Notes under the pieces: generated by a model | What the model was told of the DNA's origin: nothing | The model's database searches: none | Seen by the model: the letters and a program-made list of their open reading frames with translations, nothing else | Virus record (IMG/VR): IMGVR_UViG_3300046737_000034 | Location: 1 to 26,884 of that record | Direction: 5' to 3' (one strand) | DNA: 26,884 nt | Origin: a virus | Position numbers and translations under genes: made by a program | Shown: positions 1 through 23,710 of the stretch, one piece after another | How the letters are laid out: each line of letters begins with the position of its first letter | How positions within the stretch are numbered: the first letter of the stretch is position 1

Positions 1-787
1 TAATGGCGTAGAGGGAGGGCATTATTCCAAAAAATGATAGCTCAAGTATTGTTATCCATAAAAAGCTTGTATAGCTAAGAGGGGTGGTAATAGATACTGG
101 GGTTATCTTAACAGCATAATATACACAAAGCTGTGTTATACCAGAGGATGCGCCCCCTAAGATTAGCGGCAACCAATGATTCATATGAATAGGTTCCCAC
201 CCAATAATTATAAAAGGCAGCAAACAAATACACATGAACACATTTGGATATAAGGACATCAATAAGACGTGGTCTTTGTTGTATTTTCGAATGATAATCT
301 TTTTAGTGGAGGCAATAATCGCCCCTAATAATACTATGACGCTCCCAATATTAAACGTTAGCTCTGGTCTTAAAGCAATGATAATTCCTAGGACAGAGAA
401 AGTCATTGCAATCACCTTTGGGAGACTCACCTTCTCTTTTAATACAAAGATGCCCATATAGACGATAAAGATACCTTCACTATATCCAAGTACATATATA
501 TCGCTGAGCTTAAGTATCTTGTAAGCATATAAAAATAGTAAGGTAGCTGAGAAATTAACAATGCAATGAGCAAGCCTAGCTATTGGTTGTTTTGCAATGA
601 ATTTATCCTTTATGTTTCCAAGGTAGAAGATAAGCCCTAAGATTGGAATCATCTTCATGAAGGCCCGTATACCTACCATTTGAAGAAATGGATAATTGGG
701 GAGCGCTATGTTCTTGAATGATAGGTCTGATATAACCGCTAAGAATATCCCAAATATCATCAACAATGGGCCTTTGTATCTATTCAT
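1..787 (-). CDS. EamA/DMT-family membrane transporter, C-terminus cut by window edge
   Basis: The minus frame is open from ATG at 787-785 to the window edge, giving 262 visible residues beginning MNRYKGPLLMIFGIF. The product is dominated by hydrophobic segments (roughly eight to nine helices visible) with short charged loops. An EamA-type repeat end is recognisable: a Gly/Tyr/Ser-rich helix, then 'FVLKEKVSLPK', a further hydrophobic helix and 'ALRPE'. A second repeat begins after it ('ITTPLSYTSFLWITILE'). The family exports or imports small metabolites across the inner membrane; the substrate cannot be told. The ATG overlaps the thg1-like stop (TGATG), so the two are probably translationally coupled. 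A drug/metabolite transporter is unusual cargo for a phage, and this end could instead be bacterial DNA flanking a prophage. The family call is fairly sure, the role is not. Confidence 0.75.
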   Translation of the reverse strand, partial: MNRYKGPLLMIFGIFLAVISDLSFKNIALPNYPFLQMVGIRAFMKMIPILGLIFYLGNIKDKFIAKQPIARLAHCIVNFSATLLFLYAYKILKLSDIYVLGYSEGIFIVYMGIFVLKEKVSLPKVIAMTFSVLGIIIALRPELTFNIGSVIVLLGAIIASTKKIIIRKYNKDHVLLMSLYPNVFMCICLLPFIIIGWEPIHMNHWLPLILGGASSGITQLCVYYAVKITPVSITTPLSYTSFLWITILELSFFGIMPSLYAI

Positions 788-1485
788 CAATCTTTCCGTA
801 TATTATCAATGATTCTACGTAGGAATTCTCTGTCTTGAGTGAATATAGGCGGCTCAACCCTTTCCCACCCACTTTCTAACCTAATGATGCAGCGGCCTCT
901 TTTAGAGCCAATGGCATAATTATTCCAATTTTGTCCTTTCTGAAATATCATTTCTTGTAATTGATCTACTTTCTTTCCAATCAATTCCTCATGCGAATAT
1001 AAACTTCGAGCCACCATTTGTATACTATTCTTGGTCGCATCTTTTTGCCGCCATATGAAATAATTCTCAACTTCGACCGGGTCTGGAATAATGAACGCCC
1101 GCGCATCAAATGATGCAACATCATCAACAATAGATAACTTGTTGAATATACCAGTTGCTAAGCTAGCTGAAACGCTTACTATTTTCTGAAGATTTCCATT
1201 AAACCACATTTCTGTATTAATTGTGTCAAAATCTGCTAATAGCAAATTGATTTCATCGGATTGAATAAAGGCTAGTTTTGCACATTGAATTTCTCTACAA
1301 AGAAATTTCGCCGTGTAATCCATTGAGTCCATAACCTTGCAGTCAAATGGCTTATCACAATTTTGTAAGAGTTTGTGAAACCCTTTTCCATCAATACGGA
1401 TAATCGTATAAGTTCGTCTTGGAAGTTTAAATCGATACCTGTCCTCATATTGTGATTTAATTCTATCACCAATGCTATCCTTCAT
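787..1485 (-). CDS. Thg1-like protein (3'-5' RNA polymerase, tRNAHis guanylyltransferase family)
   Basis: The 232-residue product has the hallmarks of the Thg1 superfamily: 'IIRIDGKGFHKL' (residues 28-39), 'FIQSDEINLLL' (73-83), 'QKIVSVSAS' (100-108), 'FDARAF' (126-131) and 'FIWRQKDATKNSI' (143-155). D32, D77 and E78 match the two-metal carboxylates of the family (human Thg1 D29, D76, E77). The C-terminal part has a 'NWNNYA..SKRG' segment instead of the HINNLYN motif of eukaryotic Thg1, which points to the Thg1-like protein (TLP) branch. Known TLPs add nucleotides in the 3'-5' direction, and bacterial ones favour repair of 5'-truncated tRNAs over adding G-1 to tRNAHis. The length is normal and the gene looks intact. 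GGAG lies six bases before the ATG. It follows a broken frame (TAATG overlap) and overlaps the transporter start. The family call is strong; the biological role here is inference. Confidence 0.92.
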   Translation of the reverse strand: MKDSIGDRIKSQYEDRYRFKLPRRTYTIIRIDGKGFHKLLQNCDKPFDCKVMDSMDYTAKFLCREIQCAKLAFIQSDEINLLLADFDTINTEMWFNGNLQKIVSVSASLATGIFNKLSIVDDVASFDARAFIIPDPVEVENYFIWRQKDATKNSIQMVARSLYSHEELIGKKVDQLQEMIFQKGQNWNNYAIGSKRGRCIIRLESGWERVEPPIFTQDREFLRRIIDNIRKD

Positions 1486-1805
1486 TATTTACTCCAATCT
1501 TCTAATACCTTTCTTGCTATTTCATTCAACCTCACCAAGAATTCTTGAAAATTATACGTCTCATGTAAAAAAACCTCAGATGTTGTTTACTAAGATTCAT
1601 TCCATACCCCATTACGTTCTACGTAGAACGTTATTTGTTAATCAAATAACTCAACCATAAGCTTTGCCGCTTCTTCGACAGAATACGAAAATACAAATAT
1701 AAAGCTTCTTGGACTTTCTGGATATATTTGAAAGTTTTCCATAAATCCCAGGCGATAGAATATAGACCGCAATACCAATTCTCTACCAATTTTAAAATAT
1801 TGGTA
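1485..1805 (-). pseudogene. Broken small reading frame directly upstream of the Thg1-like gene
   Basis: A single minus frame reads as protein-like sequence but is cut by TAA (1640-1638) and by TAG-TAA (1592-1587). The pieces are: a 34-residue stretch from ATG at 1742 (MENFQIYPESPRSFIF...), or up to 20 codons more after a TGA at 1808-1806; 15 residues (QITFYVERNGVWNES); and 33 residues ending 'NEIARKVLEDWSK'. The last stop shares a base with the thg1-like ATG (TAATG), as in coupled phage genes, which suggests that an intact gene once preceded thg1. No family is recognised. The 34-codon piece could instead be a small intact gene. No frameshift is needed to join the pieces, only stop-to-sense changes. 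Confidence 0.45.
1614..1631. repeat. Perfect 18-bp palindrome, operator-like
   Basis: ACGTTCTACGTAGAACGT is identical on both strands and lies about 130 bases before the thg1-like start, inside the broken frame. Its core TTCTACGTAG also occurs at 813-822 inside the thg1-like gene. The symmetry would suit a dimeric DNA-binding protein; no binding protein is known. Confidence 0.5.
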
Positions 1806-1820
1806 TCAAAAATTTACCAA
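1773..1820. repeat. Cluster of TACCAA(T) repeats with one inverted copy
   Basis: On the plus strand TACCAAT occurs at 1773-1779 and 1784-1790, its inverse ATTGGTA at 1799-1805, and TACCAA at 1815-1820. The second and third copies form an inverted repeat around an AT-rich centre. The cluster sits just downstream of the tRNA 3' end. It could be a set of protein-binding sites or, in the transcript, a processing hairpin (TTGGTA...TACCAA) trimming the tRNA 3' side. Confidence 0.4.
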
Positions 1821-1831
1821 AGCTTATTAAA

Positions 1832-1916
1832 TGCCCAGGACCAGACTTGAACCGGCACGGATGATTAGTCCGAGGGATTTTAAGTCCCTTGCGTCTACCA
1901 ATTTCGCCACCCGGGC
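1832..1916 (-). tRNA. tRNA-Leu(UAA)
   Basis: The minus strand folds as a class II tRNA. Acceptor GCCCGGG (1916-1910) pairs with CCTGGGC next to discriminator A at 1832. The D-loop contains GGTAGAC, the anticodon arm AGGGA-CTTAAAA-TCCCT has anticodon TAA, there is a long variable arm, and the T-loop is TTCAAGT. CCA is not encoded, so it must be added after transcription. The T-stem contains G-U pairs. The gene begins 13 bases after the stop of the winged-helix gene on the same strand and so is probably cotranscribed with it. UUA is a common leucine codon in the virion genes, which fits a phage-borne tRNA. Its 3' end faces the thg1/transporter side. Confidence 0.95.
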
Positions 1917-1929
1917 ATAGAACACTTAT

Positions 1930-2778
1930 CTAATCATGTTCGTTTAACCTTGGTCCAGGATTTTCGTTTTTAAGCATACTTTTCACAAGATGCAAAGATG
2001 CCTGCGCAACCTCCTTTGTTTTCTTCCCTTTTGGCGAATACATGTTCTTCAACAATTCCTTTGTTTCCTCGCAGGTCACATGCTGTCGTTTCATTATACC
2101 CATTTGATTATCTCCACTAGGGGCAGGCCGCTTGCTATTCAACCTATGCCTTAGATATCCACCAGGATTTCTGATGGTTTCAGTTTGCTTGTTCATTAAC
2201 TCAAGTTCGCTTGCTATCCTAGCATAACCAAAGTGATTTAACCAAAATATAGCGTCGTTCTTAAATACGCCATGATTTATCAATTGCTGGATTAGCTCCC
2301 ACTTATTCACAGTCTTAATCTCCTCATCATTACCATGATGTTTAATGGATCTTACTAATGGATAGGTAGCAGCCAGTTCTATAGGGGGGGTAGCAGCCAG
2401 TTCTATAGGGGGGGGTACCTCGGAAATACCCTTGGAACACTTATCCACAATATCTGTGGGTAACTTTTTAGCCTCAAACTTAACAACCTCTCCCCGCTTC
2501 TTGAATATAGAAAGGTTGATTTGATACTCCGTTGCACGATGCTGACTTGGGATAGCATCCCTAACCTTAATGAGATAATCCTTATCTACAAGTGATTTAA
2601 CTAAATCCGTTAAATGTCGGCGAGATAGTTTTACGCTCTTCGCAATCCTAGCTAGACTTGGATAAACAGAGCTTCCGTCATCCGATGCAAATCCTGCCAT
2701 CCTTTCTAATACATGCGACTCAGAGCTAGTTAAGCTGTTCTCGTCATTCCAAATTAAATTTAACAATCTCATGCTCAT
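1930..2778 (-). CDS. Winged-helix protein, likely phage replication initiator
   Basis: The 282-residue product has an N-terminal winged-helix domain (about residues 17-95) with the recognition region 'SVKLSRRHLTDLVKSLVDK', of the helix-turn-helix type common in phage replication proteins. A proline-rich linker (about 120-140) carries a perfect tandem repeat, PPIELAAT twice. The C-terminal half contains 'INHGVFKNDAIFWLNHFGYA' and 'IRNPGGYLRHRLN', which resembles the helical tail of phage O-like/primosomal replication proteins. The ATG overlaps the stop of the preceding gene (ATGA). The linker is encoded by two C-tracts (8 and 7 on the coding strand) that could slip. A transcriptional regulator is the main alternative. 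The DNA-binding domain is fairly sure, the replication role moderate. Confidence 0.65.
   Translation of the reverse strand: MSMRLLNLIWNDENSLTSSESHVLERMAGFASDDGSSVYPSLARIAKSVKLSRRHLTDLVKSLVDKDYLIKVRDAIPSQHRATEYQINLSIFKKRGEVVKFEAKKLPTDIVDKCSKGISEVPPPIELAATPPIELAATYPLVRSIKHHGNDEEIKTVNKWELIQQLINHGVFKNDAIFWLNHFGYARIASELELMNKQTETIRNPGGYLRHRLNSKRPAPSGDNQMGIMKRQHVTCEETKELLKNMYSPKGKKTKEVAQASLHLVKSMLKNENPGPRLNEHD
2367..2414. repeat. Perfect 24-bp tandem repeat with G7/G8 tracts
   Basis: The unit TAGCAGCCAGTTCTATA followed by seven G is present twice back to back (2367-2390 and 2391-2414), and the second G-run has an eighth G at 2415. It adds eight residues in frame to the linker of the winged-helix protein. 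Such G-runs stand out in this AT-rich DNA. Confidence 0.95.
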
Positions 2779-3041: not shown

Positions 3042-3319
3042 CAATCTCCGGCAACTATATAGCTAACTTATATCTCAAAAAATAATATACAAATTGCTTG
3101 AATATCTTTTTTGGAAATGTTATTAATTAGATACCTAGAGGCTGATAGCTTTGGTATTTTGAATTAGTGTTATTAGTTCATATGTACTCCTTCTTTTTTG
3201 TTTGCTGTTGTTGAGTTCATTCCACCTTCTTCTCCTTTTGGGCGGGATGATGACAATGCGAACTGATAGTTAAAAGAACTACAGCTGCTAGGCTTGACAC
3301 GTCTGTTAAACGAAAAGAC

Positions 3320-3635: not shown

Positions 3636-3687
3636 AAACCTGTTGTAGGGACGCGATGGTTAGCGTTTCAAGGTGCAAGGATTGGCA

Positions 3688-6183
3688 GTGTCCACTTTCC
3701 CATTCAATACATTCAATCCACAGCAAATGCCAGGAATGAATCCTGAAGGTCAGGAGTTCCCAGGCTTTCCTCCTATGGATATGCCACAAGAAGAGAATCC
3801 GCAAGAAGAGGATGCTCCATTAGAACAAAAGCAGGATTTCTATGCGAACCTTGCTGAAGATATGGACAAGAGCGTCCTTAAGCGACTGGCTACTCAATTA
3901 TTAGAAAATATCGAAAATGATGATTCCGCTAGAGAGGGTTGGTTAAAAACCATTAATGTTGGATTGAGATACCTAGGTTGGAAAGTGGAAGAATCTAGAA
4001 ATACTCCATTCATGAACGCTTGTTCTGCTTACGATACAAGTATGTCAACCGCCTTAATAAATGCTTACTCTGTTATATATGCGGAGTTGTTCCCAGCTTC
4101 AGGGCCTGCTAGATCTGAAATCATTGGTATCCCCACACAAGAAACTGAAGATCAAGGAGAGCGCGTAAAGCTCTTTATCAATAACTTTTTAACTAATATT
4201 AATAGAGATTACTACCCAGACTCTCGAACATTGGTCATGTATGTCGTGTTTTGCGGGAGTGGGTTCAGGAAGGTTTATCAAGATCCAATCTTGAATCAAC
4301 CAGATTTAAAGTTCATTAAACCTCAAGATTTCATTGTTAACCCAAATACTACGAGCTTAATGTCATCAGACAGGATGAGCCATAAAGTCTTCTTATCACG
4401 CAAAGACGTTATGTTACGTCAGTTAAGCGGTGAGTTTGTTGAAGATGCGTTGCCTGCCGTCATTGAAGAAAATCAAATGGATAAGAAGTCGATACAAAAA
4501 ACCATTGAGAAGATGGATGGCGTTCAACCTGATACGACTGAGAATAAGAGCTTATTTATATTCTATGAGACGCATGTTGATTTAACAGATGAAGACATAA
4601 ATTCCGGCAGAATAAGTAGAGAAAAAAGTAGTGACGAACTCCCTAAGCCTTACATTGTAATGATTTGTGAAGTCACTAAGACCATTGTTTCTATAAAAAG
4701 AAACTGGAAAGAAGGAGATAACACATACCATAGAGCTGAATACTTTGTGCCTTATATGTACTTACCAGGTTTCGGCATCTATGGAACAGGATTGGCACAT
4801 TTAATGGGCTCAAACTCAATTGTGTTGAGTAACGTGCTTAGGCAATTAATGGACGCAGGGACACTTAAGAATTTTCCGGGTGGTCTCAAGGTTTCTGGTC
4901 TTAAGATTGAGACGAACGATTTAGCTATAGGTCCCGCTGAATTTAGGGAGATTGAAACTGGCGGGTTACCCATTCAGCAATGCGTGATGTTGATGCCATA
5001 TGCAGAACCTTCAACGGTTTTAATGCAATTGCGCACTGACTTGATGATGCAGAGTGCCAAAAATGGAATGGCGGCTGATGTGCAAGTCCCAGAACTTGGC
5101 ACGAATGCCCCAGTTGGAACGACATTATCAATGATTGAGGTTAATGGTCGTGCACAGTCAACCGTTCTGCGTTCCTTTAGGAACTCGCTAAGCCATGAGC
5201 TAAAACTTTTATTCAATCTATTTGGTGATCATCTAGAAGATAAGCCTTATACGTTTTCTGTTCCTGGAAAAGAAACGGCTATTATGAGAGCCGATTTCAA
5301 TGAAAAGGTAAACATTGTTCCAGTTTCAGATCCAAACGTCTTAACCAGTACTCATCGTCTATTAAGGGCAGAAGCTATTTACAAGATAGCGAGTTCGGCA
5401 CCTCAAATCTACAACATGCGTGAAATCAATAAGATGATGTTACATGCCATGAATGTAGACAATATAGACAAGCTTTTGATTGAAGAGCCGCAGCCTGTTG
5501 TGTTGGACGCCATGAGCGAAAACATGAATATTTTGGCTGGGAAGCCGGTGATGGTTAATGCTCAGCAAGACCACAAGTCTCACAAACCTATTCATACTGC
5601 ATTTGCCTTAGAAATGAAACAATCTGGGAATCTTGCGTCATATGCTTCAGCTATAGAACATGAACAAATGCATAAAGCAATGGAAGCGGCAGAGATGTTG
5701 ATTCAGCAGAAGGTTCATCAGCAGGTTCAGCAGCAAATTGAATCGGGTCAAATCCATCCTGCCTTTGCTGATAAGGTTTTTGAACAAATGCATTCCCAGG
5801 CGATGCAACAATTATCTCAGACGCCAGCACCACAACTATTGCAAGACATGGAGATTCAGAACGCGGTCTCTAAGATGGATGCGGAGGAATTGGCGCAGCA
5901 GCAACAGCAAATGCAGCAACAGCAACAACAAATACAAGAACTTCAGCAAGTTCCAAACAAGATCATGATGGAAGACATTAACCAAAGAAAAGAAGCTGCT
6001 CACCTTAAGAATGATGAGACGAAATTGAAAGTCGAGGAGGATGCTTTTAAGGCGCAACTGCACTTTGAGAGCGAGAAAGCGAAACTGGAAGCGCAAAAGG
6101 ATATGGCTACAGACAAGCATCTTGTTGATATAGCCATTGCCGAAATGAAACAGAATCCAACACGTAATCCTGAGGGGTATTAG
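3688..6183 (+). CDS. Portal protein
   Basis: The 831-residue product has the layout of podovirus-type portals: a Met/Pro-rich lead, then 'GWLKTINVGLRYLG', 'NACSAYDTSMSTALINAYSV', 'YAELFPASGPARSEIIG', 'SGFRKVYQDPILNQPDLKFI' and 'PQDFIVNPNTTSLM'. The portal is the dodecameric ring at one capsid vertex through which DNA is packaged and ejected. Residues from about 640 to 815 form a long Gln-rich helical/coiled-coil tail (many QQ runs around 740-770), longer than the core fold needs. The start is taken as GTG at 3688, with AAGGA six bases upstream; a GTG at 3673 is less well placed. It is the first gene of the rightward operon. No terminase large subunit precedes it, which is unusual for this gene order. 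Confidence 0.88.
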   Translation: MSTFPFNTFNPQQMPGMNPEGQEFPGFPPMDMPQEENPQEEDAPLEQKQDFYANLAEDMDKSVLKRLATQLLENIENDDSAREGWLKTINVGLRYLGWKVEESRNTPFMNACSAYDTSMSTALINAYSVIYAELFPASGPARSEIIGIPTQETEDQGERVKLFINNFLTNINRDYYPDSRTLVMYVVFCGSGFRKVYQDPILNQPDLKFIKPQDFIVNPNTTSLMSSDRMSHKVFLSRKDVMLRQLSGEFVEDALPAVIEENQMDKKSIQKTIEKMDGVQPDTTENKSLFIFYETHVDLTDEDINSGRISREKSSDELPKPYIVMICEVTKTIVSIKRNWKEGDNTYHRAEYFVPYMYLPGFGIYGTGLAHLMGSNSIVLSNVLRQLMDAGTLKNFPGGLKVSGLKIETNDLAIGPAEFREIETGGLPIQQCVMLMPYAEPSTVLMQLRTDLMMQSAKNGMAADVQVPELGTNAPVGTTLSMIEVNGRAQSTVLRSFRNSLSHELKLLFNLFGDHLEDKPYTFSVPGKETAIMRADFNEKVNIVPVSDPNVLTSTHRLLRAEAIYKIASSAPQIYNMREINKMMLHAMNVDNIDKLLIEEPQPVVLDAMSENMNILAGKPVMVNAQQDHKSHKPIHTAFALEMKQSGNLASYASAIEHEQMHKAMEAAEMLIQQKVHQQVQQQIESGQIHPAFADKVFEQMHSQAMQQLSQTPAPQLLQDMEIQNAVSKMDAEELAQQQQQMQQQQQQIQELQQVPNKIMMEDINQRKEAAHLKNDETKLKVEEDAFKAQLHFESEKAKLEAQKDMATDKHLVDIAIAEMKQNPTRNPEGY

Positions 6184-6185
6184 TC

Positions 6186-7016
6186 ATGAGTGAATTTGGT
6201 AAGAGTGGATATCACGGCCCAGACTCCATGAGAGAGAAAGCTGAAAAGATTTTCAGAGAATCCGGTGAAATGAAAGAGATATCTAGAGTGGTTCCAGGAA
6301 GCTATTCAGCGCGTAGTCGTGACAAAACACGGTTTTATGCAAAGGGTGGACATGTTGAGGAGGGTTCCCATTGTCACAAGATGGAGAAATCCCAGTATGA
6401 CATGAAGATTCCTCGTATTACAAAAACACCCGTAGTAAACGTTGAGAATTTTGAAAAAGCAAGCCGAATGAGAAAAGGCGGGAAGGTTCATAAGAAGGCC
6501 GATGGTGGTCTGATGCAGAATGCCTACGAGAGCAACATGGCTAACAATGCATTGAACTCAATGAACCCGGCTGTAATGAATGCGCCTAATGCTGCAATGA
6601 AGAGAGGCGGCAAGGTTCGCAAGAAGGCGGGTGGTGGAGAAGCCGCGCAATTTCGAAAGATGGTTGAGGCTCCTACTGTTGGAATGAGACCCATGAAGAA
6701 GGGCGGTTCTACTAAGAAGAAAGCCGAAGGTGGAAAGATGGCAGGTTATGCCCGTGGTGGAAATGTTTATGAAAGAGATATGGAGGGTGAACATCATCAT
6801 TCTTCTAACCACTATAGGGATTACTTGGCTGAAATGCGTGGTGAACATGGTGAACATGCAGCTCACGATCATTCCCATATTGGAAAATCTAAAGGAACAC
6901 CTTATGCAGAAGGTGGATATGCCATGGGTGGCGTTGGAAAGATTCGTCATAAGGAATCGACGAAATCAGGTAAGCAAACAGGGGGAAAAGGCTCAAAGGG
7001 CTCACCTTTTGCTTAA
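6186..7016 (+). CDS. GG-motif repeat protein, basic, with His-rich segment
   Basis: The 276-residue product begins two bases after the portal stop with GAGGGG before its ATG. Its C-terminal two thirds carry repeats: MRKGGKVHKKADGG, MKRGGKVRKKAGGG and MKKGGSTKKKAEGG, plus 'YAKGGHV', 'YARGGNV' and 'YAEGGYAMGG'. A His-rich stretch ('GEHHHSSNH', then 'GEHGEHAAHDHSHIG') lies around residues 200-235. The remainder is Lys/Gly-rich and probably disordered. I recall GG-type repeats of this kind in environmental phage proteins without assigned function. The position next to the portal suggests a virion or packaging-linked role; nucleic acid binding through the Lys-rich repeats and metal binding by the His cluster are guesses. 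It is real as a gene, since reading frame and RBS are good. Confidence 0.7.
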   Translation: MSEFGKSGYHGPDSMREKAEKIFRESGEMKEISRVVPGSYSARSRDKTRFYAKGGHVEEGSHCHKMEKSQYDMKIPRITKTPVVNVENFEKASRMRKGGKVHKKADGGLMQNAYESNMANNALNSMNPAVMNAPNAAMKRGGKVRKKAGGGEAAQFRKMVEAPTVGMRPMKKGGSTKKKAEGGKMAGYARGGNVYERDMEGEHHHSSNHYRDYLAEMRGEHGEHAAHDHSHIGKSKGTPYAEGGYAMGGVGKIRHKESTKSGKQTGGKGSKGSPFA

Positions 7017-7020
7017 TTGT

Positions 7021-7078
7021 GTAAAGCGTTACAAGGACGGTGCCCTGCTTTACGCAAATGGAGTTGTGTAGAGCAGGG
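7021..7078 (+). promoter_or_regulatory. Two mutually exclusive hairpins between genes
   Basis: GTAAAGC (7021-7027) can pair with GCTTTAC (7047-7053), while CCCTGCT (7043-7049) can pair with AGCAGGG (7072-7078). The two stems share bases 7047-7049, so only one can form at a time. No T-run follows. The second stem ends close to the ribosome-binding site of the next gene. Confidence 0.4.
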
Positions 7079-7093
7079 TTAACAGGGATGTTT

Positions 7094-7333
7094 ATGTCGA
7101 TATTTAATTATGTGGACGAATTGCTTTTGAGATTGAGGGATAGAGATAAGGTGTATGCAGATACACTATTAAATACTATTTTTCAGTCTTTAGAGGAGCA
7201 GAAGATGACTAAAGGAAAGAGAGAGGGAGTTAGGGATGCGATAAATGTCGTATTGCAATTAAATAAGGATTTTTTTGAGTCAAAGAGTTTAAAACCAGAA
7301 CTAAGGGAGTATGGAAATAATGAAGTTTACTGA
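7094..7333 (+). CDS. Small protein of unknown function
   Basis: The 79-residue product starts MSIFNYVDELLLRLRDRDKV and is mostly helical and charged, ending 'LREYGNNEVY'. ATG at 7094 is chosen because AGGG lies six bases upstream; the in-frame ATG at 7088 directly abuts that site. Its 3' end overlaps the start of the GroES-like gene by 14 bases. No family is recognised. The position between the portal-linked gene and the scaffold suggests a head assembly or packaging accessory, without direct evidence. Confidence 0.6.
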   Translation: MSIFNYVDELLLRLRDRDKVYADTLLNTIFQSLEEQKMTKGKREGVRDAINVVLQLNKDFFESKSLKPELREYGNNEVY

Positions 7334-7955
7334 TAGACGAGGACAAGGAAATAAGAATTTTGTCCTTCCAAAGAAGGAAGAGATTAAAAAGACCGCTTTA
7401 GAGATAGAACAAGAGAATCAGAGAGCCATGCAAGAACATTTGGACATGATTCGACAAGAAGAATTGCGTTTGAATGGAATTGAAGCGTCTAGAGCAAGAT
7501 GTCTGGATTCTTTTAGATTATCTCCCCGCTTACAAAAGCTGAGCTTTATAGAAGAGCATGAAGAAGCTGAAGCCATTCGACAGATAGAGGAATTATTAGG
7601 GTTTGAGAGACCGCGCGTCTGCGGGTACATGATTACCGTTAAGATTTATGTGCGAGATGAAGATGTTGGAAAGCTTTTAGACAAAGACGGTCGCGAGACT
7701 CTCTTATATGCGCCAGCAAAAGTCTCGGCGCACGACAAGTATAGAAACTGTAGTGGATTGGTGCTTTCTATAGGACCCATTGCTTATAAGGACCCTAAAT
7801 TCATGGGTGTGCCATGGTGTAAGGTTGGCGATTGGGTAATGATTGCCAGGAATGGAGGGCCGCAAGTCAATTATAGGGGAATTCCTGTAACCACTATTCC
7901 TGACGATAACATTTACTGGACTTTAGAATGCCCAACTCATGTAACCAGAGATTAA
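7320..7955 (+). CDS. GroES-like (Cpn10-fold) phage protein
   Basis: The 211-residue product has a helical, charged N-terminal region (about 1-95) and a C-terminal beta domain. The latter reads 'CGYMITVKIYVRDEDVGKLL' (from residue 101), 'LVLSIGPIAYKDP' (from about 147) and 'WCKVGDWVMI' (from 166), then a short beta finish. This is the pattern of phage co-chaperonin-like proteins: a first strand, a long mobile loop region, a G-x-V-L-x-x-G-P turn and a K-x-G-D-x-V turn. Co-chaperonins of this kind cap the host GroEL and help fold capsid proteins (as T4 gp31). The mobile loop here (about 112-135) lacks an obvious hydrophobic tripeptide, so interaction with GroEL is unproven. ATG at 7320 is preferred over 7311 for RBS spacing. 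It lies upstream of scaffold and capsid genes. Confidence 0.55.
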   Translation: MKFTDRRGQGNKNFVLPKKEEIKKTALEIEQENQRAMQEHLDMIRQEELRLNGIEASRARCLDSFRLSPRLQKLSFIEEHEEAEAIRQIEELLGFERPRVCGYMITVKIYVRDEDVGKLLDKDGRETLLYAPAKVSAHDKYRNCSGLVLSIGPIAYKDPKFMGVPWCKVGDWVMIARNGGPQVNYRGIPVTTIPDDNIYWTLECPTHVTRD

Positions 7956-7978
7956 AGGGGTAATAAGGTAATTTGAAC

Positions 7979-8005
7979 TAAACGATGACAGGGTGTCGTC
8001 GTTTA
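7979..8005 (+). promoter_or_regulatory. 12-bp hairpin with GGG loop before scaffold gene
   Basis: TAAACGATGACA (7979-7990) pairs with TGTCGTCGTTTA (7994-8005) with one G-U pair and a three-base GGG loop. It is not followed by a T-run. It lies between the GroES-like gene and the scaffold gene and could be an mRNA-stabilising or processing element. Confidence 0.5.
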
Positions 8006-8038
8006 AACGGATTTTACAAAACATTATGGAGGATGAAC

Positions 8039-9046
8039 ATGTCTGTAGAATACAAACAAGAGTTTCAGGTTGATAACGTAAGTAACCCAATGAAGCGGGA
8101 AGTGTTCGACGAAAATGATATGCGTCATTTTCAAGAAGACGGTCAACCAGAAAATGAAATACATGAAGAGCCTGAAATAGAGGAAGAGGCTTTCGAAGAA
8201 GAGCAACCGGAAGAAGAATCCGTAGAGGCTTCTGGTGAAGAACAGAAGAAACGTCAGAAAAGAGATCCGGCCAACGCCAGGATCAATCAACTTCAAAGAC
8301 AGCGGTACGCTGCCTTGCATGAGAGTGAACGCTTAAGGGATGAAAACGAGCGTCTAAAGCGTCTTGCTACCCTTACTACAGATATAGCTACTAAGCATTA
8401 TGAAGAGAGTATTTCTCAACGAATGCAACAAGCCATAACTCTCAAAAAACAAGCTGTTGAAAGCGGAGATGTTGAAGCTCAAGCTAAGGCCGAGACTGAT
8501 TATCTTGACGCAATGATTGACTATAAGACACACAATACTTCGAAAGCAAGAGAAGCCCTTCAGGCACAAGAGGCAGCATACCAAGGCCCTTCTCATACTG
8601 TTGGCCCAATCGTTAATGAACGTGAAGCCAGAAGTTGGATAGAACGTAATCCTTGGGCAAATCCAAATACTGAAGATTATGACGCACAACTGTTTCAGTT
8701 AGCAGATAGTGCCGCCTCTCAATTGGATTTGTATTGCTATCAGAATGGAAATCAACATTTGATTCAGTCTCCTGAATATTTTAGGGAATTGGATAATTAT
8801 GTTAATCAGGCGCGTCAGTCGATGGAATCACAACGCGCACAATCTCATGGAAGGAGTCAAATACCGATGCGTCAATCTACGAGAAGTCCTGTAATGCCTG
8901 TTAGAGGAAGCAACAATGCGCAATCTAGCGGAAGGCAGAAAATACAGCTTAATAGTGCTCAGAAAGAAATGGCTCGTTCATTAGGGGTAACGGATGAAGC
9001 TTATGCAAAAGATTTTAAAGAGAAATACACACGGATGGGAGGATGA
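8039..9046 (+). CDS. Capsid scaffolding protein
   Basis: The 335-residue product has a very acidic N-terminal third with Glu runs (about 40-70), a basic switch 'KKRQKRDPANARINQLQRQR', long coiled coil (about 85-185) with heptads such as 'ESERLRDENERLKRL', and a short C-terminal helix 'EMARSLGVTDEAYAKDFKE'. This is the usual look of phage scaffold proteins, which direct capsid subunit assembly and leave before or during packaging; the C-terminal helix often binds the capsid protein. ATG at 8039 has GGAGG upstream at an ideal distance. The location between portal and capsid genes agrees. No protease gene is seen, so the scaffold is probably removed intact. Confidence 0.75.
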   Translation: MSVEYKQEFQVDNVSNPMKREVFDENDMRHFQEDGQPENEIHEEPEIEEEAFEEEQPEEESVEASGEEQKKRQKRDPANARINQLQRQRYAALHESERLRDENERLKRLATLTTDIATKHYEESISQRMQQAITLKKQAVESGDVEAQAKAETDYLDAMIDYKTHNTSKAREALQAQEAAYQGPSHTVGPIVNEREARSWIERNPWANPNTEDYDAQLFQLADSAASQLDLYCYQNGNQHLIQSPEYFRELDNYVNQARQSMESQRAQSHGRSQIPMRQSTRSPVMPVRGSNNAQSSGRQKIQLNSAQKEMARSLGVTDEAYAKDFKEKYTRMGG

Positions 9047-9047
9047 T

Positions 9048-9590
9048 ATGGTAATTGAAAAAAGCGAACGAGCTGAACGAAAATCACGATCTGATGCAAT
9101 GCGAGAACTAGAGACTCGTATTTCACAATTGCGAAAAGGCTATCAGATGAATGGAAGAGATCCCCTTTACATCCCAAAGGAAGTTATACCAGAAGGGTGG
9201 GAATATCATTGGGGTCGCATGAGCTATGACGGTGGTAGACCAGATATGGCACGAGAACTGGAACTTAATCGTTGTGGTTGGACGCCCGTTCCTCCTGAAC
9301 GTCATCCAGATTTAGTGCCAAAAGATTACACAGGCAGGGCTCACCAGGCACTCGCCGTTATCTTGATTAATGGATTGATGCTATTAGAGAGACCAGAGAT
9401 ATTTGGTATAGAAGATAGACAGAGGCGTTCTCGCGGTAATTATGAACAACTTACCTCTATTAAGGGGTTGAAGAACTTCTTAGGAGATAACGAAGACGTT
9501 CCAGGCCTACAGATTAACAATTCTTTAGACTTCACTCATGAAAAGGGAGTTGTTGGAAGGAGAGTCTTGTCGCCGAATACAACATTCTAG
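9048..9590 (+). CDS. Conserved phage head-region protein of unknown function
   Basis: The 180-residue product reads 'IPEGWEYHWGRMSYDGGRPD', 'RELELNRCGWTPVPPERHPD' and then a helical segment with 'ALAVILINGLMLLERPEIFG'. I recall similar sequences (P-E-G-x-x-Y-x-W ... G-W-x-P-V-P ... R-H-P) in many environmental phages between scaffold and capsid genes, never with a function. ATG at 9048 has GGGAGG five bases upstream, and that site lies within the end of the scaffold gene. A terminator follows the stop. A minor head or assembly factor is the best guess. Confidence 0.7.
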   Translation: MVIEKSERAERKSRSDAMRELETRISQLRKGYQMNGRDPLYIPKEVIPEGWEYHWGRMSYDGGRPDMARELELNRCGWTPVPPERHPDLVPKDYTGRAHQALAVILINGLMLLERPEIFGIEDRQRRSRGNYEQLTSIKGLKNFLGDNEDVPGLQINNSLDFTHEKGVVGRRVLSPNTTF

Positions 9591-9594
9591 AACT

Positions 9595-9630
9595 AAAGCC
9601 AATGGTGTGAACTATTGGCTTTTTTTATTT
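9595..9630 (+). terminator. Rho-independent terminator after portal-scaffold operon
   Basis: AAAGCCAAT (9595-9603) and ATTGGCTTT (9614-9622) form a perfect nine-pair stem with a ten-base loop, followed by a T-rich run. It begins five bases after the stop of the preceding gene. Confidence 0.85.
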
Positions 9631-9640
9631 TATGTTATAC

Positions 9641-9668
9641 TTGTTTCGTGATAGGTGTTATCTATATT
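9641..9668 (+). promoter_or_regulatory. Promoter candidate for the capsid operon
   Basis: TTGTTT (9641-9646) and TATATT (9663-9668) are 16 bases apart, directly after the terminator and before the capsid leader. The -10 is good and the -35 partial. The position argues for it: strong separate expression of capsid genes is common in phages. Confidence 0.5.
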
Positions 9669-9894
9669 GAGTTGCAAAGGCTTTCTTCTCGCGAATTGAG
9701 CTGACGGATAGGATCCGTTCAGGTTGAAGTAGATAACACAGATTACATCGAGTGTACCAAATCTCGTTAAATAAGGTAGCGGTAACCATACCCCCCTCGT
9801 GCCAAACACACGTTAAATCAAAGCGGACCTGAGCTTTAAAACGGTCGGACAGTGACGTCCAAAGTAGTACTTAAATGGATTTAACGAGGTGTTT
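9669..9894 (+). promoter_or_regulatory. Structured 5' leader of the capsid genes
   Basis: About 225 bases without a gene. CTGACGGAT-AGG-ATCCG(T)TCAG (9701-9722) forms a hairpin with a bulged T. GGAC/GTCC (9847-9860) is a smaller one. CTCGTTAAAT (9763-9772) is the inverse of ATTTAACGAG (9879-9888), and CGTTAAATC (9811-9819) is the inverse of GATTTAACG (9878-9886). Both pairings would cover the bases at or beside the GAGGTG ribosome-binding site (9886-9891) of the decoration gene. A third local pairing, TTAAA-TGGA-TTTAA (9871-9884), competes with both. This resembles translational control of capsid synthesis. Confidence 0.55.
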
Positions 9895-10566
9895 ATGAGT
9901 CTTGGTTATAACGCTCCACGCGGTCTAATTCCTAGTCAATATTTGAATGGGTCTTCTTGGACCGGTCAAACTTCTCCTTACTACATAATTTCTGGTTTAG
10001 CGGCAACTCTTAATACTGGCGATCCAGTTTATTGGGATAACGCTACTGGCGGTATTACATTAGCAACTGCTGGAAGTACAAATCTCATTCTTGGTTCATT
10101 CCAGGGATGCAGATATACAGATTCAAGCGGTGTTACACAATTCTCCCCTAGATGGACAACTGGAACAGCAACTCTTGGCGCGGTTCCAGCTGAAGCGTTC
10201 GTGTGTGACGATCCAAATATTTTATTCAATGTCCAAATCGCATCCGGCGCGGGCGGAACAGTAGCCGCTCCATCGATTGCCCTTGCTAATTTAGGTTTAA
10301 ACGTAAATCTAAACGTTGCGCAAGGGACTGCTTACAACGCAGTTAATGGTGTTGTGCCTGCTGCTAACCCTGCGGCTAGCACCCCTCTTAACGGGCAATC
10401 TGTTTGGTATCTGGATTCCAATTCACCAATCGGAACCGGCGTTACTCTGCAAATGAAAATTATCAGATTTACACCTATTCCTGGAAACATTGCTGGATTG
10501 GTATTTAATAATGCGCTGTGCCTAATAAACACACACGCACTCTTAAGACCATCAGTTGGATATTAA
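9895..10566 (+). CDS. Probable capsid decoration/head stabilising protein
   Basis: The 223-residue product starts MSLGYNAPRGLIPSQYLNGS and is rich in Gly, Ala, Thr and Asn with predicted beta strands: 'YYIISGLAATLNTGDPVYWD', 'LILGSFQGCRYTDSSG', 'AFVCDDPNILFNVQIASGAG'. The pattern and the place directly before the major capsid gene fit the small structural proteins that coat or brace phage capsids. GAGGTG lies five bases before ATG 9895; a GTG at 9889 overlaps that site and is rejected. It is preceded by a long structured leader and its own promoter candidate. A head fibre or minor capsid role is the alternative. Confidence 0.6.
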   Translation: MSLGYNAPRGLIPSQYLNGSSWTGQTSPYYIISGLAATLNTGDPVYWDNATGGITLATAGSTNLILGSFQGCRYTDSSGVTQFSPRWTTGTATLGAVPAEAFVCDDPNILFNVQIASGAGGTVAAPSIALANLGLNVNLNVAQGTAYNAVNGVVPAANPAASTPLNGQSVWYLDSNSPIGTGVTLQMKIIRFTPIPGNIAGLVFNNALCLINTHALLRPSVGY

Positions 10567-10613
10567 AGATTTATAGGGCATTGAAGCCCGTAGTAATTAC
10601 AAGGAGTTTTAGT

Positions 10614-11516
10614 ATGGCGATTAACTCATCTCAAATCGCGTCGCTTTTGCGACCTGGTCTCTCGGCCGTGTTTGGTGATTACCAATTCTACCCAAGTCAA
10701 TGGACTGAATTATTTGAGACCTATGAGTCTGATAAGGCAGTTGAATACGAAACAGAAATGAGAATGCTAGGCCTCGGTCAAATCAGAGCTGAGGGTGCAC
10801 CAACCGCTAGTGACGTGATGGGTCAGCGCGTTATCTCGACCTATATCAATAGATATGTTGCCTTGCAGTTCCAAATCACGCGCGCCGCGATTATGGACAA
10901 CCTGTACAAGACAAAATTCCCATTAATGGTTAAGGCTCTTAAAAAGTCTATGGCCCAAACAAAGGACGTTTTAGCTGCCTCTGTTTTCAATAATGCCTTT
11001 GACACCGCCTTTGCGGGTGGAGATGGCAAGCCACTTTGTTCGACAACTCACCCAATCGACACAGGCGTTTATGCAAATGCGCCAGCCGTTAGCGTGGACT
11101 TGAATGAAGCTTCTTTGGAAAGCGCTTTGATTACAACTCAGCAGTTCAAAGACCAAGCGGGTTTGATTGTTATGACAAAGGCTCAAAAACTAGCCGTTGC
11201 TCCTCAAGGTCAATTTGTAAGTGAGCGTTTGTTGGGATCAGCCTTCAGAACAAACACTCCGAATAATGACGTTTCGGCCATTTATAACGGTTCTTACCTG
11301 CCAAAAGGCTGGGTATGTAATCAGTACTTTACATCACCTAACGCTTGGTTCTTGTTGACCGATGCTCAAGATGGTCTTAAGCACTATGTCAGAGAAAAGA
11401 TTGAGACAGATGTCTATACGGACTACTCTACTGATAATTTAATGGCAAAAGCTGTGGAAAGATACAGTTTCGGATGGTCAAACCCACGCGCTGTTTATGG
11501 TAGTAACGGACCTTAA
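10614..11516 (+). CDS. Major capsid protein (HK97-fold type)
   Basis: The 300-residue product matches the major head proteins of the type carrying 'LCSTTHPIDTGVYANAPAV', 'LESALITTQQFKDQAGLIV', 'NQYFTSPNAWFLLTDAQDGL' and a final 'ERYSFGWSNPRAVYGSNG'. Early 'TASDVMGQRVISTYINRYV' and 'FQITRAAIMDNL' are likewise typical. This subunit builds the icosahedral shell. No N-terminal delta domain is evident, in line with a separate scaffold gene. AAGGAG lies seven bases before ATG 10614. Gene order, with the scaffold two genes upstream and neck genes downstream, supports the call. Confidence 0.88.
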   Translation: MAINSSQIASLLRPGLSAVFGDYQFYPSQWTELFETYESDKAVEYETEMRMLGLGQIRAEGAPTASDVMGQRVISTYINRYVALQFQITRAAIMDNLYKTKFPLMVKALKKSMAQTKDVLAASVFNNAFDTAFAGGDGKPLCSTTHPIDTGVYANAPAVSVDLNEASLESALITTQQFKDQAGLIVMTKAQKLAVAPQGQFVSERLLGSAFRTNTPNNDVSAIYNGSYLPKGWVCNQYFTSPNAWFLLTDAQDGLKHYVREKIETDVYTDYSTDNLMAKAVERYSFGWSNPRAVYGSNGP

Positions 11517-11544
11517 TATTAGTCGGCTCTCTTAGGGGAAATAT

Positions 11545-12669
11545 ATGTCATTACTGTTAAATTTTACTGCGCCAACTGCATTAACCAGTCCTTTGCTGGT
11601 TGGTCCTCCGGTTGCGACGACTGGCGGGTCTATCGACAGTATTCCATCGCTGACATTAGTGAGTACTGTTCCTGTTTCAGCCACATTGGAGCTTCAGGGT
11701 ACAGCTAGCGGGCTTCTTCTGAATCGAGTGACGACTATTGAGCGTGATGCGATTGTTACGCCTGCGAATGGAATGTTGGTATATAACACAACGACAGACC
11801 AGCTCAATATTTACGCCGCTTCTGCCTGGACAATTGTAGAAGCAAGCGGTGGCGCAATTGTATCAACGTCCATCCAAAATGGTGCTGGTACTGTAGCGCT
11901 TCCAAGTTACACATTTACGGGCGATACGAATACCGGGATGTGGAGTAGTGCCGCTGATGTGATTGATTTCTCATCGGCTGGTGCGCGAACGCTTCAGGTT
12001 GAAGGTACTGGGGCTCTTGCTATTTCTGGTGGCACCAGTGCTGGTGGAATTCGTCTCTGGAATCAAGCGAACACATTCTGGTCATTGATTAAGTCCGCTG
12101 CGGTTGCTTCTAACCTCACCTGGACATGGCCTCTTATTGATTCCGCTGTTCCGGCTGGTGGAATATCCACGACAACAGCTATCCCAATGTCTTCAAATGC
12201 TTCTGGTGTATTAGCGTTCTCAAATACTGGAATGGCTTATGCCACTGGAACAATTACGTCTCAAAATATCATAGATATGGCTACAACTGGGGTCACGTTA
12301 CTTGGAACCCCTGGGGTTGGTTTTGCATATGTTATTCATAGTTTTGGTTTAGAGCTTATTGGTGGAACTGCATATGGTAACGGTGGAACAGTTTACTTGC
12401 AGTACGGTACAACCGGTGCTGGAACTGTTACGGCTACAGCTATGTTGCCTGCAACAGCGGTAACAGCTGCATCTACTGGCAATAATACATTTGCAACCGT
12501 GAATGGTTTAATCGGAGCAAACAAGAACGGAACAACGTTATCGGGAACACAGCAAACAACTGCCGCTACGTCAAATGCTGTTATTTCCATTACGGCATCA
12601 ACGGCATTTATTACAGGTACTGGTACAGCCAAGTGGTATATCTGGTACTCAATCGTGCCAATAACATAA
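11545..12669 (+). CDS. Fibre-like virion protein, probably head or tail fibre
   Basis: The 374-residue product is Thr/Ser/Gly/Ala-rich and modular: 'LLLNRVTTIERDAIVTPANG' followed by 'MLVYNTTTDQLNIYAASAWT' (about 56-95), 'GDTNTGMWSSAADVIDFSSA' (about 124-143), 'GIRLW...LTWTWPLIDSAV' (about 167-199) and a C-terminal beta domain of about 165 residues. The first module is widespread in phage fibres and adhesins and recurs in the 931-residue fibre and the 119-residue protein of this window. Fibres bind cell-surface receptors. Its place directly after the capsid gene suggests a capsid-attached fibre. AGGGGA precedes ATG 11545. Confidence 0.7.
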   Translation: MSLLLNFTAPTALTSPLLVGPPVATTGGSIDSIPSLTLVSTVPVSATLELQGTASGLLLNRVTTIERDAIVTPANGMLVYNTTTDQLNIYAASAWTIVEASGGAIVSTSIQNGAGTVALPSYTFTGDTNTGMWSSAADVIDFSSAGARTLQVEGTGALAISGGTSAGGIRLWNQANTFWSLIKSAAVASNLTWTWPLIDSAVPAGGISTTTAIPMSSNASGVLAFSNTGMAYATGTITSQNIIDMATTGVTLLGTPGVGFAYVIHSFGLELIGGTAYGNGGTVYLQYGTTGAGTVTATAMLPATAVTAASTGNNTFATVNGLIGANKNGTTLSGTQQTTAATSNAVISITASTAFITGTGTAKWYIWYSIVPIT

Positions 12670-12714
12670 ACGATAGGATTTATTTAACATTAAATAGGAA
12701 ATGGAGCGTAAGAC

Positions 12715-12969
12715 ATGGAAAAGTTAGTAGCGACAATTGAAACGCAGATTAAGGCATTACAAGAGGCTTTAAACAAGCATACAGATGCATTATCTAAATT
12801 GGAGAATGACAGGACCGTTATAATTGCTGAAATTAGCAAGCTTAATGGAGCTATTGTTGGGTATCGCGATTCAGCGAATCTTATGAAGCAATCATTGGTA
12901 TCCGATTCTAAAGAAGCAAATGATGCTCTGAAACCACTAGAAGGCGAAATTATCGCCGCAGGGGAATAA
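12715..12969 (+). CDS. Small coiled-coil protein
   Basis: The 84-residue product is helical throughout, with heptad-like spacing ('LVATIETQIKALQEALNKH', 'LSKLENDRTVIIAEISKLNG'). Two helices with a break near residue 45 would give a helical hairpin or trimeric bundle. Its stop shares a base with the start of the next gene (TAATG). Unknown function; possibly a chaperone or trimerisation partner for the fibre before it. A weak GGAAATGGAG stretch precedes the ATG. Confidence 0.6.
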   Translation: MEKLVATIETQIKALQEALNKHTDALSKLENDRTVIIAEISKLNGAIVGYRDSANLMKQSLVSDSKEANDALKPLEGEIIAAGE

Positions 12970-13682
12970 TGGCTAGATCAGCTGTTTTTACATGGCCAGC
13001 TTCCAGTGCGACCGCAATATGCGCGTCTCAAAACAGGGCATCCGCTGGTGCTCTGATTATCAATGGTGGTTTAGCGACTAATGCTTTACCACCAGACTCT
13101 AATGCTGTTGCGCCATTTGTGAAGTTTGTTGGATATTCGCGCGTTATTACGGTCAGTTCAGCCTCGAATGTCGCTACCGTTAACTTTACAATTACTGGCA
13201 CATATCGAAACTTACCTCAATCTGCCGTGGTGACGGGCGTTAGTGGTAATACTGTTGCAACCACTGCATTGTTTGATACGGTTACTGACGTTTCTATTAG
13301 TGCGACTCTTGGCGCATTTAACGTTACAGTTGGTACAGGAACAACAGGTCAGACCTTATGGTACAGATTTAATGATAATGCTTCTGTTTGCGCTATGACA
13401 GCTCAGATAGTTGTTACCGATACAATCAATTACACCTTACAGGGAACATTAGATTCGATTGAAACTACTGCGGCCCCTGCCGTATTTAGTCCTATATTCC
13501 CGATGATTGCTGCTACAACCAGTCTTGCCTATCCTTTAGGTATTTATCAGATAGCCAATACAGCCGCCGTTAATTACATCTTGTCTGCGCCGACACCAGT
13601 TAAGTATGCAAATATTCTAATCAATTCAGCCGGTGCCGCTGGGGCTTTAGTAGCAACCTTTGTTCAGCAAGGAGTTACTTAA
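12969..13682 (+). CDS. Beta-rich virion structural protein
   Basis: The 237-residue product starts MARSAVFTWPASSATAICAS and contains 'SRVITVSSASNVATVNFTIT', 'GVSGNTVATTALFDTVTDVS' and 'ISATLGAFNVTVGTGTTGQT'. The pattern of a strand with T-I-T-G-T, then a T-V-T-x-x-S-I-S repeat and V-G-T-G is one I recall from phage virion structural proteins annotated as unknown. Low charge and many Thr/Ser/Ala/Val residues fit an exposed beta-sandwich. Coupled by TAATG to the coiled-coil gene and adjacent to the small basic protein, it sits between capsid and neck genes. Confidence 0.6.
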   Translation: MARSAVFTWPASSATAICASQNRASAGALIINGGLATNALPPDSNAVAPFVKFVGYSRVITVSSASNVATVNFTITGTYRNLPQSAVVTGVSGNTVATTALFDTVTDVSISATLGAFNVTVGTGTTGQTLWYRFNDNASVCAMTAQIVVTDTINYTLQGTLDSIETTAAPAVFSPIFPMIAATTSLAYPLGIYQIANTAAVNYILSAPTPVKYANILINSAGAAGALVATFVQQGVT

Positions 13683-13901
13683 ATGAGTAGAGCTAAGAAA
13701 GAAGTAATGCGAGAGGGTGGAAATTTCATTCAGAAAGCCATTAAGAATCCTGGGGCATTGCATCGCAAGCTACATGTTCCTAAAGGCGAGAAGATTCCTG
13801 CTAAGAAGCTTACTAAAGCGACGCACTCCAAGAATCCAACTTTAAGGAAAGAGGCTATTCTTGCTCGCACCTTAAAGCGTCTACACAATGGACACAAATA
13901 A
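13683..13901 (+). CDS. Small basic phage protein
   Basis: The 72-residue product is strongly basic: 'FIQKAIKNPGALHRKLHVPK', then 'GEKIPAKKLTKATHSKNPTL' and 'ARTLKRLHNGHK'. The 'FI.KAIK.PGALR..L.V..GEKIPAKKL.KA' pattern is one I recall from many phages at this position, of unknown function. It could bind DNA or RNA or be packaged in the virion. AAGGAG lies ten bases before the ATG, inside the end of the preceding gene. Confidence 0.75.
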   Translation: MSRAKKEVMREGGNFIQKAIKNPGALHRKLHVPKGEKIPAKKLTKATHSKNPTLRKEAILARTLKRLHNGHK

Positions 13902-13913
13902 GGATGAGCGGTA

Positions 13914-14966: not shown

Positions 14967-15376
14967 CAATGAGACCGCACGGTAAGCATGTACAAATAGA
15001 CCCCGATTCTCCGAAAGCGTTAGGTATCTGTGATTACACAGGATTTGTGCATATGCGAAAGGATTTGGTGCGACAAATGGAGTGGAGAGGAAACGCACTT
15101 ATCTGGACAGGGCTTTATGTAGGTAGAAACTACCAAGATGTTCCTAATGAGCAGAATAGGCCGCCTATATTGCCTCCTGATCCAATCCCTGTTTTATGGC
15201 CACGCCCACCACGAACAACGCAGATTACGTGGAGTCAGGGTTTAGGAATTCCTTGGAATCAGTTAAGTCAAGTCACGTGGGGAACTTGGGGAACAATAGA
15301 GAATGGTTCTCAAGCTCTTCCTGAAGGCGAGAGATTACAGCAATTACAGCAAGTGCGTTTTATGGGGGGAGCGTGA
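14963..15376 (+). CDS. Conserved phage protein related to zinc-knuckle family but lacking the cysteines
   Basis: The 137-residue product reads MTMRPHGKHVQIDPDSPKAL then 'GICDYTGFVHMRKDLVRQME', 'WRGNALIWTGLYVGRNYQDV' and 'PPILPPDPIPVLWPRPP'. I recall a conserved phage family with C-D-x-C-G-F, then W-R-G and C-x-x-C before a PPDPVP motif. Here only one of the four cysteines is kept (C23), so zinc binding is unlikely. The rest is Trp/Pro-rich with 'ITWSQGLGIPWNQLSQVTWG'. It overlaps its neighbours by four bases on each side (ATGA and GTGA), so translation is probably coupled. The role in the neck or tail is unknown. Confidence 0.6.
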   Translation: MTMRPHGKHVQIDPDSPKALGICDYTGFVHMRKDLVRQMEWRGNALIWTGLYVGRNYQDVPNEQNRPPILPPDPIPVLWPRPPRTTQITWSQGLGIPWNQLSQVTWGTWGTIENGSQALPEGERLQQLQQVRFMGGA

Positions 15377-15732: not shown

Positions 15733-15741
15733 GGTGAAAAT

Positions 15742-18537: not shown

Positions 18538-18546
18538 GGGTTATTT

Positions 18547-19179: not shown

Positions 19180-19180
19180 T

Positions 19181-20926: not shown

Positions 20927-20989
20927 AAAAGGATGGTGTCAATTTGAACCCACCCTTTCAGTTGTACGATTTTATAGCGGGGAATATAG

Positions 20990-21217: not shown

Positions 21218-21231
21218 AAGGAACTTATTTT

Positions 21232-22269: not shown

Positions 22270-22288
22270 AAAAGTAGAGGAATTTACT

Positions 22289-23704: not shown

Positions 23705-23710
23705 TGAGAT

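What the first reader, a model, noticed from the sequence alone, without database searches (positions are those of the whole stretch)
1..1916. tRNA-Leu, Thg1-like polymerase and transporter carried as one cassette beside phage genes
A tRNA lies 13 bases after a phage-type replication gene and on the same strand as a Thg1-like gene, which overlaps a transporter gene. TLPs are known to rebuild 5' ends of tRNAs. A phage that carries a tRNA and a repair polymerase could resist host tRNA cleavage or fix its own tRNA. The transporter could supply or move a metabolite. The functional link is inference; the gene layout is seen directly.
Basis: partly seen in the sequence, partly recalled or inferred. 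Interest (0 to 1): 0.62.

Follow-up and report, generated by a model that had tools for sequence, protein, structure and literature searches.

The report
Phage tRNA, Thg1-like repair enzyme, transporter
A fragment of a bacterial virus carries a leucine tRNA, an enzyme that probably repairs damaged 5' ends of RNA, and a membrane transporter side by side; the enzyme and the tRNA are known kinds of phage cargo, and no relative carries the three together, so a working link between them is not supported.

Summary
The layout is real. On the minus strand, after a phage replication-initiator gene (1930-2778), come a canonical tRNA-Leu(UAA) (1832-1916), a gene remnant (about 1645-1742), a Thg1-like gene (787-1485) and an EamA transporter gene (787 to the contig end, cut off). 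The Thg1 and EamA genes overlap by one base.

The record is a virus contig. Its head/tail block matches a 54-kb phage, G002, nearly gene for gene. The remnant between tRNA and thg1 matches the gene next to the replication initiator in G002, so phage DNA continues past the tRNA. The tRNA is therefore not the phage/host border.

The Thg1 protein keeps the catalytic and activation residues of Bacillus TLP (4KGK), so it is best read as a 3'-5' RNA-end repair polymerase. Phage Thg1 is well known: 127 phage records match. In other phages it lies near RNA ligase genes more often than chance.

The "one cassette" reading fails. None of 26 records, mostly capsid-related phages, has Thg1. No capsid-related phage tested, and no other Thg1-bearing virus tested, has EamA. 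Relatives carry single tRNAs of other kinds (Asn, Phe). Most likely these are separately acquired accessory genes in a variable region. A new member of a known kind.

The parts
1930..2778 (-). replication initiator (O-like, HTH_36); phage core gene, 34-37% identical to the one at the same place in G002
1832..1916 (-). tRNA-Leu, anticodon UAA; 85 nt, A73, no encoded CCA, long variable arm; 13 bases downstream of the initiator stop codon
1645..1742 (-). remnant of a phage gene (C-terminal 28 aa, 50% identical to L093 5912-6235, the gene beside the initiator in G002); open frame runs from about 1800 to the stop at 1638
   Evidence: tblastn E 1.9e-6 over the whole window; 0 of 5000 shuffles reach the score
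1614..1631 (.). 18-bp perfect palindrome ACGTTCTACGTAGAACGT, possibly an operator; function unknown
787..1485 (-). Thg1-like protein (TLP), 232 aa; D32, D77, E78 (metal carboxylates), K45 and S76 (activation), R30, K101, R129 (transfer) all present; GGAG ribosome site
1..787 (-). EamA/DMT-family membrane transporter, incomplete (C-terminus beyond contig end); ATG overlaps the thg1 stop by one base
3673..25761 (+). phage head/tail block (portal, capsid, adaptors, ejection-like protein), nearly gene-by-gene syntenic with G002

Best explanation
The stretch is a variable accessory region of a roughly 50-58 kb tailed phage (genome size inferred from relatives), placed downstream of the replication initiator and probably read in the same direction as it. 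The Thg1-like protein is a phage-borne TLP: it activates a 5'-monophosphorylated, 5'-shortened tRNA (or similar RNA) with ATP or GTP and adds nucleotides 3'-to-5' against the acceptor-stem template, limiting RNA damage during infection. The tRNA-Leu(UAA) is a separate, ordinary phage tRNA that reads UUA, the commonest leucine codon of this phage, and may replace host tRNA lost to nucleases. The EamA protein is a translationally coupled transporter of unknown substrate. Shown: gene content, order, phage context, intact active site, and absence of the trio in relatives. Inferred: activity, operon transcription, and any benefit in infection.
For: Phage context: synteny with G002 through the structural block and the initiator. 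The remnant gene beyond the tRNA shows phage DNA continues leftward. No tyrosine integrase in the window or in G002. Enzyme: the best solved relative is BtTLP 4KGK, E 6e-56, and residues D30/D75/E76/K43/S74 named in PMC3701042 are matched by D32/D77/E78/K45/S76. The eukaryote-specific HINNLYN motif is replaced by ATKNSIQ, as expected for a TLP. Context: around phage Thg1 genes the recurrent neighbours include a CCA-adding/poly(A) polymerase head domain, RNA ligase, the HAD domain of RNA-repair proteins, RlaP and a weak macro-domain match. An RNA ligase lies within 2 kb of Thg1 in 6 of 27 records against 1.3 expected, P 0.0015. 34 of 47 records (46 Thg1-bearing viruses and the window) carry tRNA genes over the cut-off. 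Codons: UUA is 38% of leucine codons in the structural genes. Independent acquisition: relatives lack Thg1 and EamA and carry tRNA-Asn or tRNA-Phe instead.
Against: No expression or activity data. No polynucleotide kinase or RNA ligase was recognised in the genes scanned, though about half of the genome is missing and not every small gene was scanned. G002 has the same UUA usage and no tRNA-Leu was found in it, so codon compensation is not needed by that relative. The ligase test counts records, some of which are related, so its P value is optimistic. No control was run for tRNA content of large phages without Thg1. The Thg1 branch is long (1.22) and its place in the tree is not resolved.
Confidence: 0.62

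Rival explanations
1. Dedicated counter-defence cassette: the phage supplies a tRNA-Leu, the TLP mends it or its host counterpart after cleavage, and the transporter moves a needed metabolite; the three are selected together.
For: Same strand, close spacing, one-base overlap of thg1 and EamA; phage tRNAs can defeat tRNA-cutting defences (PMC11555353; PMC10264068).
Against: The trio is found in no other record tested. Relatives carry tRNAs of other identities without Thg1. A remnant gene and a palindrome separate tRNA and thg1. A TLP cannot rebuild an anticodon-cut tRNA alone. The anticodon loop is ordinary.
Confidence: 0.1
2. The left 1.9 kb is host chromosome and the tRNA is the attachment site of a prophage.
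For: tRNA genes are common attachment sites; two relatives carry a tyrosine integrase, and in G074 it lies about 1 kb from a tRNA. EamA is a mainly cellular family. The left 2 kb is slightly lower in G+C than the structural block.
Against: A remnant of a phage gene lies beyond the tRNA. The phage side is at the 5' end of an intact tRNA, the reverse of the usual arrangement, with only 13 bases between. No tyrosine integrase in the window or G002. No second copy of the tRNA 3' part in the window. The Thg1 belongs to the phage family phrog_4717.
Confidence: 0.1
3. Assembly chimera: the left end of the metagenomic contig was joined to unrelated DNA, for example from another phage carrying Thg1.
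For: No close relative shares this end; the contig stops inside EamA.
Against: The remnant gene lies inside the left region. The GGAG ribosome sites of the initiator and thg1 are alike. No abrupt composition break.
Confidence: 0.08
4. Thg1 modifies something other than tRNA, for example caps or tags 5' ends of phage or host transcripts, with EamA unrelated.
For: Substrates of bacterial TLPs in cells are not settled (PMC6471195).
Against: Neighbourhoods of phage Thg1 point to RNA repair; the bacterial and archaeal TLPs tested so far prefer 5'-shortened tRNAs (PMC6471195).
Confidence: 0.1

Closest known systems
BtTLP, Thg1-like protein of Bacillus thuringiensis (PDB 4KGK/4KGM)
   Same: Nearly full-length alignment, E 6e-56; metal carboxylates, K43, S74 and M158 positions match
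   Different: Phage-borne here; activity not tested; next to a tRNA and a transporter
Phage Thg1 / tRNA-His guanylyltransferase family phrog_4717 (e.g. Bacillus phage Bc431v3 gp143, Pseudomonas phage 201phi2-1)
   Same: Same family, E 8.8e-75; phage-borne; many such phages also carry tRNA genes
   Different: Apart from one 4.2-kb fragment, all listed phage records with a match are 88 kb or larger; this phage's relatives are about 50-58 kb. No close homologue (at most 61% identity)
Bacterial Thg1 RNA-repair neighbourhoods (polynucleotide kinase, RNA ligase, macro domain; PMC2904730)
   Same: Same enzyme family; the link to RNA ligase is also seen near phage Thg1
   Different: No kinase or ligase seen in the part of this genome that was scanned
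Phage tRNAs that evade tRNA-cutting defences (PMC11555353, PMC10264068)
   Same: A phage-encoded tRNA that could replace a depleted host tRNA
   Different: Leucine UAA tRNA with an ordinary anticodon loop; no defence system is linked to it
Phage G002 (IMGVR_UViG_3300046707_000080), closest relative found
   Same: Structural block mostly 45-86% identical per gene and same initiator position
   Different: Lacks Thg1 and EamA; has tRNA-Asn and other genes in this region

Membership tests
Thg1-like protein (TLP) family | Thg1 domain over the curated cut-off | tested here: met
   PF04446 88.9 bits against cut-off 29.2
Thg1-like protein (TLP) family | Three metal-binding carboxylates and the activation lysine/serine | tested here: met
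   D32, D77, E78, K45, S76 align with D30, D75, E76, K43, S74 of BtTLP
Thg1-like protein (TLP) family | Lacks the eukaryotic HINNLYN motif (TLP rather than true Thg1) | tested here: met
   ATKNSIQ at that place; BtTLP has ASKNSIS
Thg1-like protein (TLP) family | Templated 3'-5' addition on 5'-shortened tRNA | not testable with these tools
   needs an enzyme assay
Functional tRNA-Leu(UAA) | Cloverleaf, long variable arm, A73, intact anticodon loop | tested here: met
   RF00005 50.9 bits, E 2.4e-8; sequence read directly
EamA/DMT transporter | Two EamA domains, ten membrane helices | tested here: inconclusive
   Two EamA stretches, 67.2 bits, but the C-terminus is beyond the contig end; helices not counted
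Prophage inserted at a tRNA | Integrase and att repeat beside the tRNA | tested here: not met
   No PF00589 match in the window; no repeat of the tRNA 3' part in the window; phage gene remnant on the far side
Conserved tRNA-Thg1-EamA cassette | Same genes together in related genomes | tested here: not met
   0 of 26 records with Thg1; 0 capsid-related or other Thg1-bearing records with EamA

The most novel reading that the evidence does not exclude
A small phage uses a co-transcribed unit of a tRNA, a 3'-5' RNA polymerase and a transporter as one anti-defence device, in which the polymerase keeps the phage tRNA-Leu intact against a host nuclease that shortens tRNA 5' ends.
Probability: 0.07. 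Interest if true: 0.65.

Novelty: new member of a known kind. Interest (0 to 1): 0.3.

Why it matters
What Thg1-like proteins do in bacteria and phages is still open; their cellular RNA targets are not settled. A phage that keeps an intact TLP beside a single tRNA would be a manageable system for asking which RNA the enzyme mends during infection. The excess of RNA ligases beside phage Thg1 genes supports a repair role for the family in phages, extending what was proposed for bacteria. The window itself adds one more divergent member, in a phage group not otherwise seen to carry it.

Tried and rejected
Phage boundary at the tRNA: rejected, because a remnant of a phage gene lies beyond it and the orientation is wrong. 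Conserved cassette: rejected by searches of relatives and of other Thg1 viruses. EamA as a clue to origin or substrate: best plasmid matches are about 25% identical, no solved structure matches, no named NCBI family passes its cut-off; a viral scan found none. Scan with the initiator alignment: only G002 again plus one weak match. Tree of Thg1: the window sits on a long, unplaced branch, so no donor can be named. The palindrome: one other exact match in the viral collection, about what chance gives, and no Rfam match there. Codon compensation for tRNA-Leu: compatible, but G002 has the same usage.

Full report
What is there. The window is a 26,884-base virus record of IMG/VR. On the minus strand from 3044 down to 1 lie a small helix-turn-helix gene (2775-3044), a replication-initiator gene (1930-2778; phrog_391 O-like, E 1.5e-9), a tRNA-Leu(UAA), a gene remnant, a Thg1-like gene (787-1485) and an EamA transporter gene that runs off the contig end. 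The plus strand from 3673 onward is a head/tail block: portal, major capsid, two SU10-adaptor matches (one below its cut-off) and a DNA-ejection-like protein.

The tRNA. ARAGORN gives 1831-1917, but Rfam gives 1832-1916 at 50.9 bits, E 2.4e-8. Comparison with the standard numbering shows G1-C72, A73 and no encoded CCA; ARAGORN's extra pair is U-1 with A73. The anticodon loop is CUUAAAA.

The enzyme. The Thg1 domain scores 88.9 bits against a cut-off of 29.2. The best solved relative is BtTLP, PDB 4KGK, E 6e-56. The residues named for BtTLP in PMC3701042 (D30, D75, E76, K43, S74) are D32, D77, E78, K45 and S76 here; R30, K101 and R129 match the transfer-site residues. The HINNLYN motif of true Thg1 is replaced by ATKNSIQ. 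These features make an active TLP likely; activity itself is untested. In published work the bacterial and archaeal TLPs tested prefer to restore 5'-shortened tRNAs, and the longest addition reported is 13 nucleotides (PMC6471195).

Phage or host. Almost every gene of the head/tail block has a counterpart in the same order in G002, a 54,134-base virus record: portal 74%, capsid 86%, others mostly 45-77%. The initiator is 34-37% identical and sits at the same divergent position. Left of the tRNA, the open frame ending at 1638 matches the last third of the gene next to the initiator in G002: 28 residues at 50% identity, E 1.9e-6 in a search of the whole window, and 0 of 5000 shuffles reach the score. 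Phage sequence therefore continues past the tRNA. The tRNA is intact with the phage on its 5' side, no tyrosine integrase is found in the window or G002, and no other copy of the tRNA 3' part is present.

Is it a cassette. A capsid profile found 29 related loci. A search of 26 records, 25 of them in this phage group and one unrelated record fetched by the palindrome, found no Thg1. No group member tested has EamA, and none of 47 other Thg1-bearing virus records has EamA. tBLASTn of the EamA protein against the loci fetched by then found none. Relatives carry one tRNA of another identity: Asn in G002, G070 and G075; Phe in G072 and G076. Many of these records are fragments, so absence is not proof, but seven are 49-58 kb long. 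The simplest reading is a variable region where single tRNAs and other accessory genes come and go. The one-base overlap of thg1 and EamA (TGATG) does suggest that these two are translated together.

What Thg1 does in other phages. ORFs around 86 Thg1 loci from viral and genome contigs were clustered. Recurrent neighbours are a poly(A)-polymerase head domain, YqeY, RNA ligase, the HAD domain of RNA-repair proteins, RlaP, nucleoside deoxyribosyltransferase-like and NADAR proteins, and a weak macro-domain match. In the 27 virus records with an RNA ligase over the cut-off, it lies within 2 kb of Thg1 in 6 records against 1.3 expected (P 0.0015), and within 10 kb in 11 against 4.9 (P 0.004). Thg1 positions for this test were worked out from the match coordinates. 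Some records are related, so these P values are optimistic. The pattern agrees with the RNA-repair neighbourhoods described for bacteria in PMC2904730 and with PMC7824862 on jumbo phages.

Known or new. Thg1 in phages appears already in PMC2904730 (201phi2-1) and PMC3601020 (Bc431v3 gp143). 127 phage records match this protein. Apart from one 4.2-kb fragment, all those listed are 88 kb or larger, whereas relatives of this phage are about 50-58 kb. That is mildly unusual. The closest Thg1 is at most 61% identical and the window's branch is long and unplaced.

Verdict. The phage-borne TLP reading is well supported, the repair function is likely, and the cassette and counter-defence readings remain speculation that the comparison with relatives weakens.

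Noticed in passing
window 1614-1631: Perfect 18-bp palindrome ACGTTCTACGTAGAACGT between the remnant gene and thg1. One other exact match in the viral collection (L149:5920), where it sits in a cluster of similar repeats near a T-arm-like sequence; no Rfam match there.
   Followed up: partly
window 2365-2412: Two exact tandem copies of a 24-nt unit (GGTAGCAGCCAGTTCTATAGGGGG) inside the replication-initiator gene; could be origin repeats or a coding repeat.
   Followed up: no
window 3572-3635: 16-bp inverted repeat, 94% complementary with a 32-nt spacer, in the divergent region between the initiator and the portal gene.
   Followed up: no
L093, L130, L150, L151, L152, L157: Phages of this group carry single tRNA genes of differing identity (Asn, Phe); in L150 and L151 tRNA-Asn lies beside a large-terminase-like gene (read by eye).
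   Followed up: partly
G074:C1:323-1909: In a relative, a tRNA lies about 1 kb from a tyrosine integrase gene, so some members of the group may be temperate and use a tRNA as attachment site.
   Followed up: no
L010, L014, L018, L028, L049, L064, L072, L073, L077, L088: Recurrent RNA-repair and nucleotide-metabolism genes around phage Thg1, including YqeY about 10 bases away (median) in nine Thg1 clusters, and NADAR and deoxyribosyltransferase-like proteins.
   Followed up: partly
L093 2478-3503: A patatin-like protein (GGGxRG and GTSTG motifs, read by eye) in the accessory region of the related phage G002.
   Followed up: no
window 16888-17063, 19495-19705: Stretches of the large tail genes match more than one gene in relatives (L116, L117), suggesting shuffling of tail modules.
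   Followed up: no
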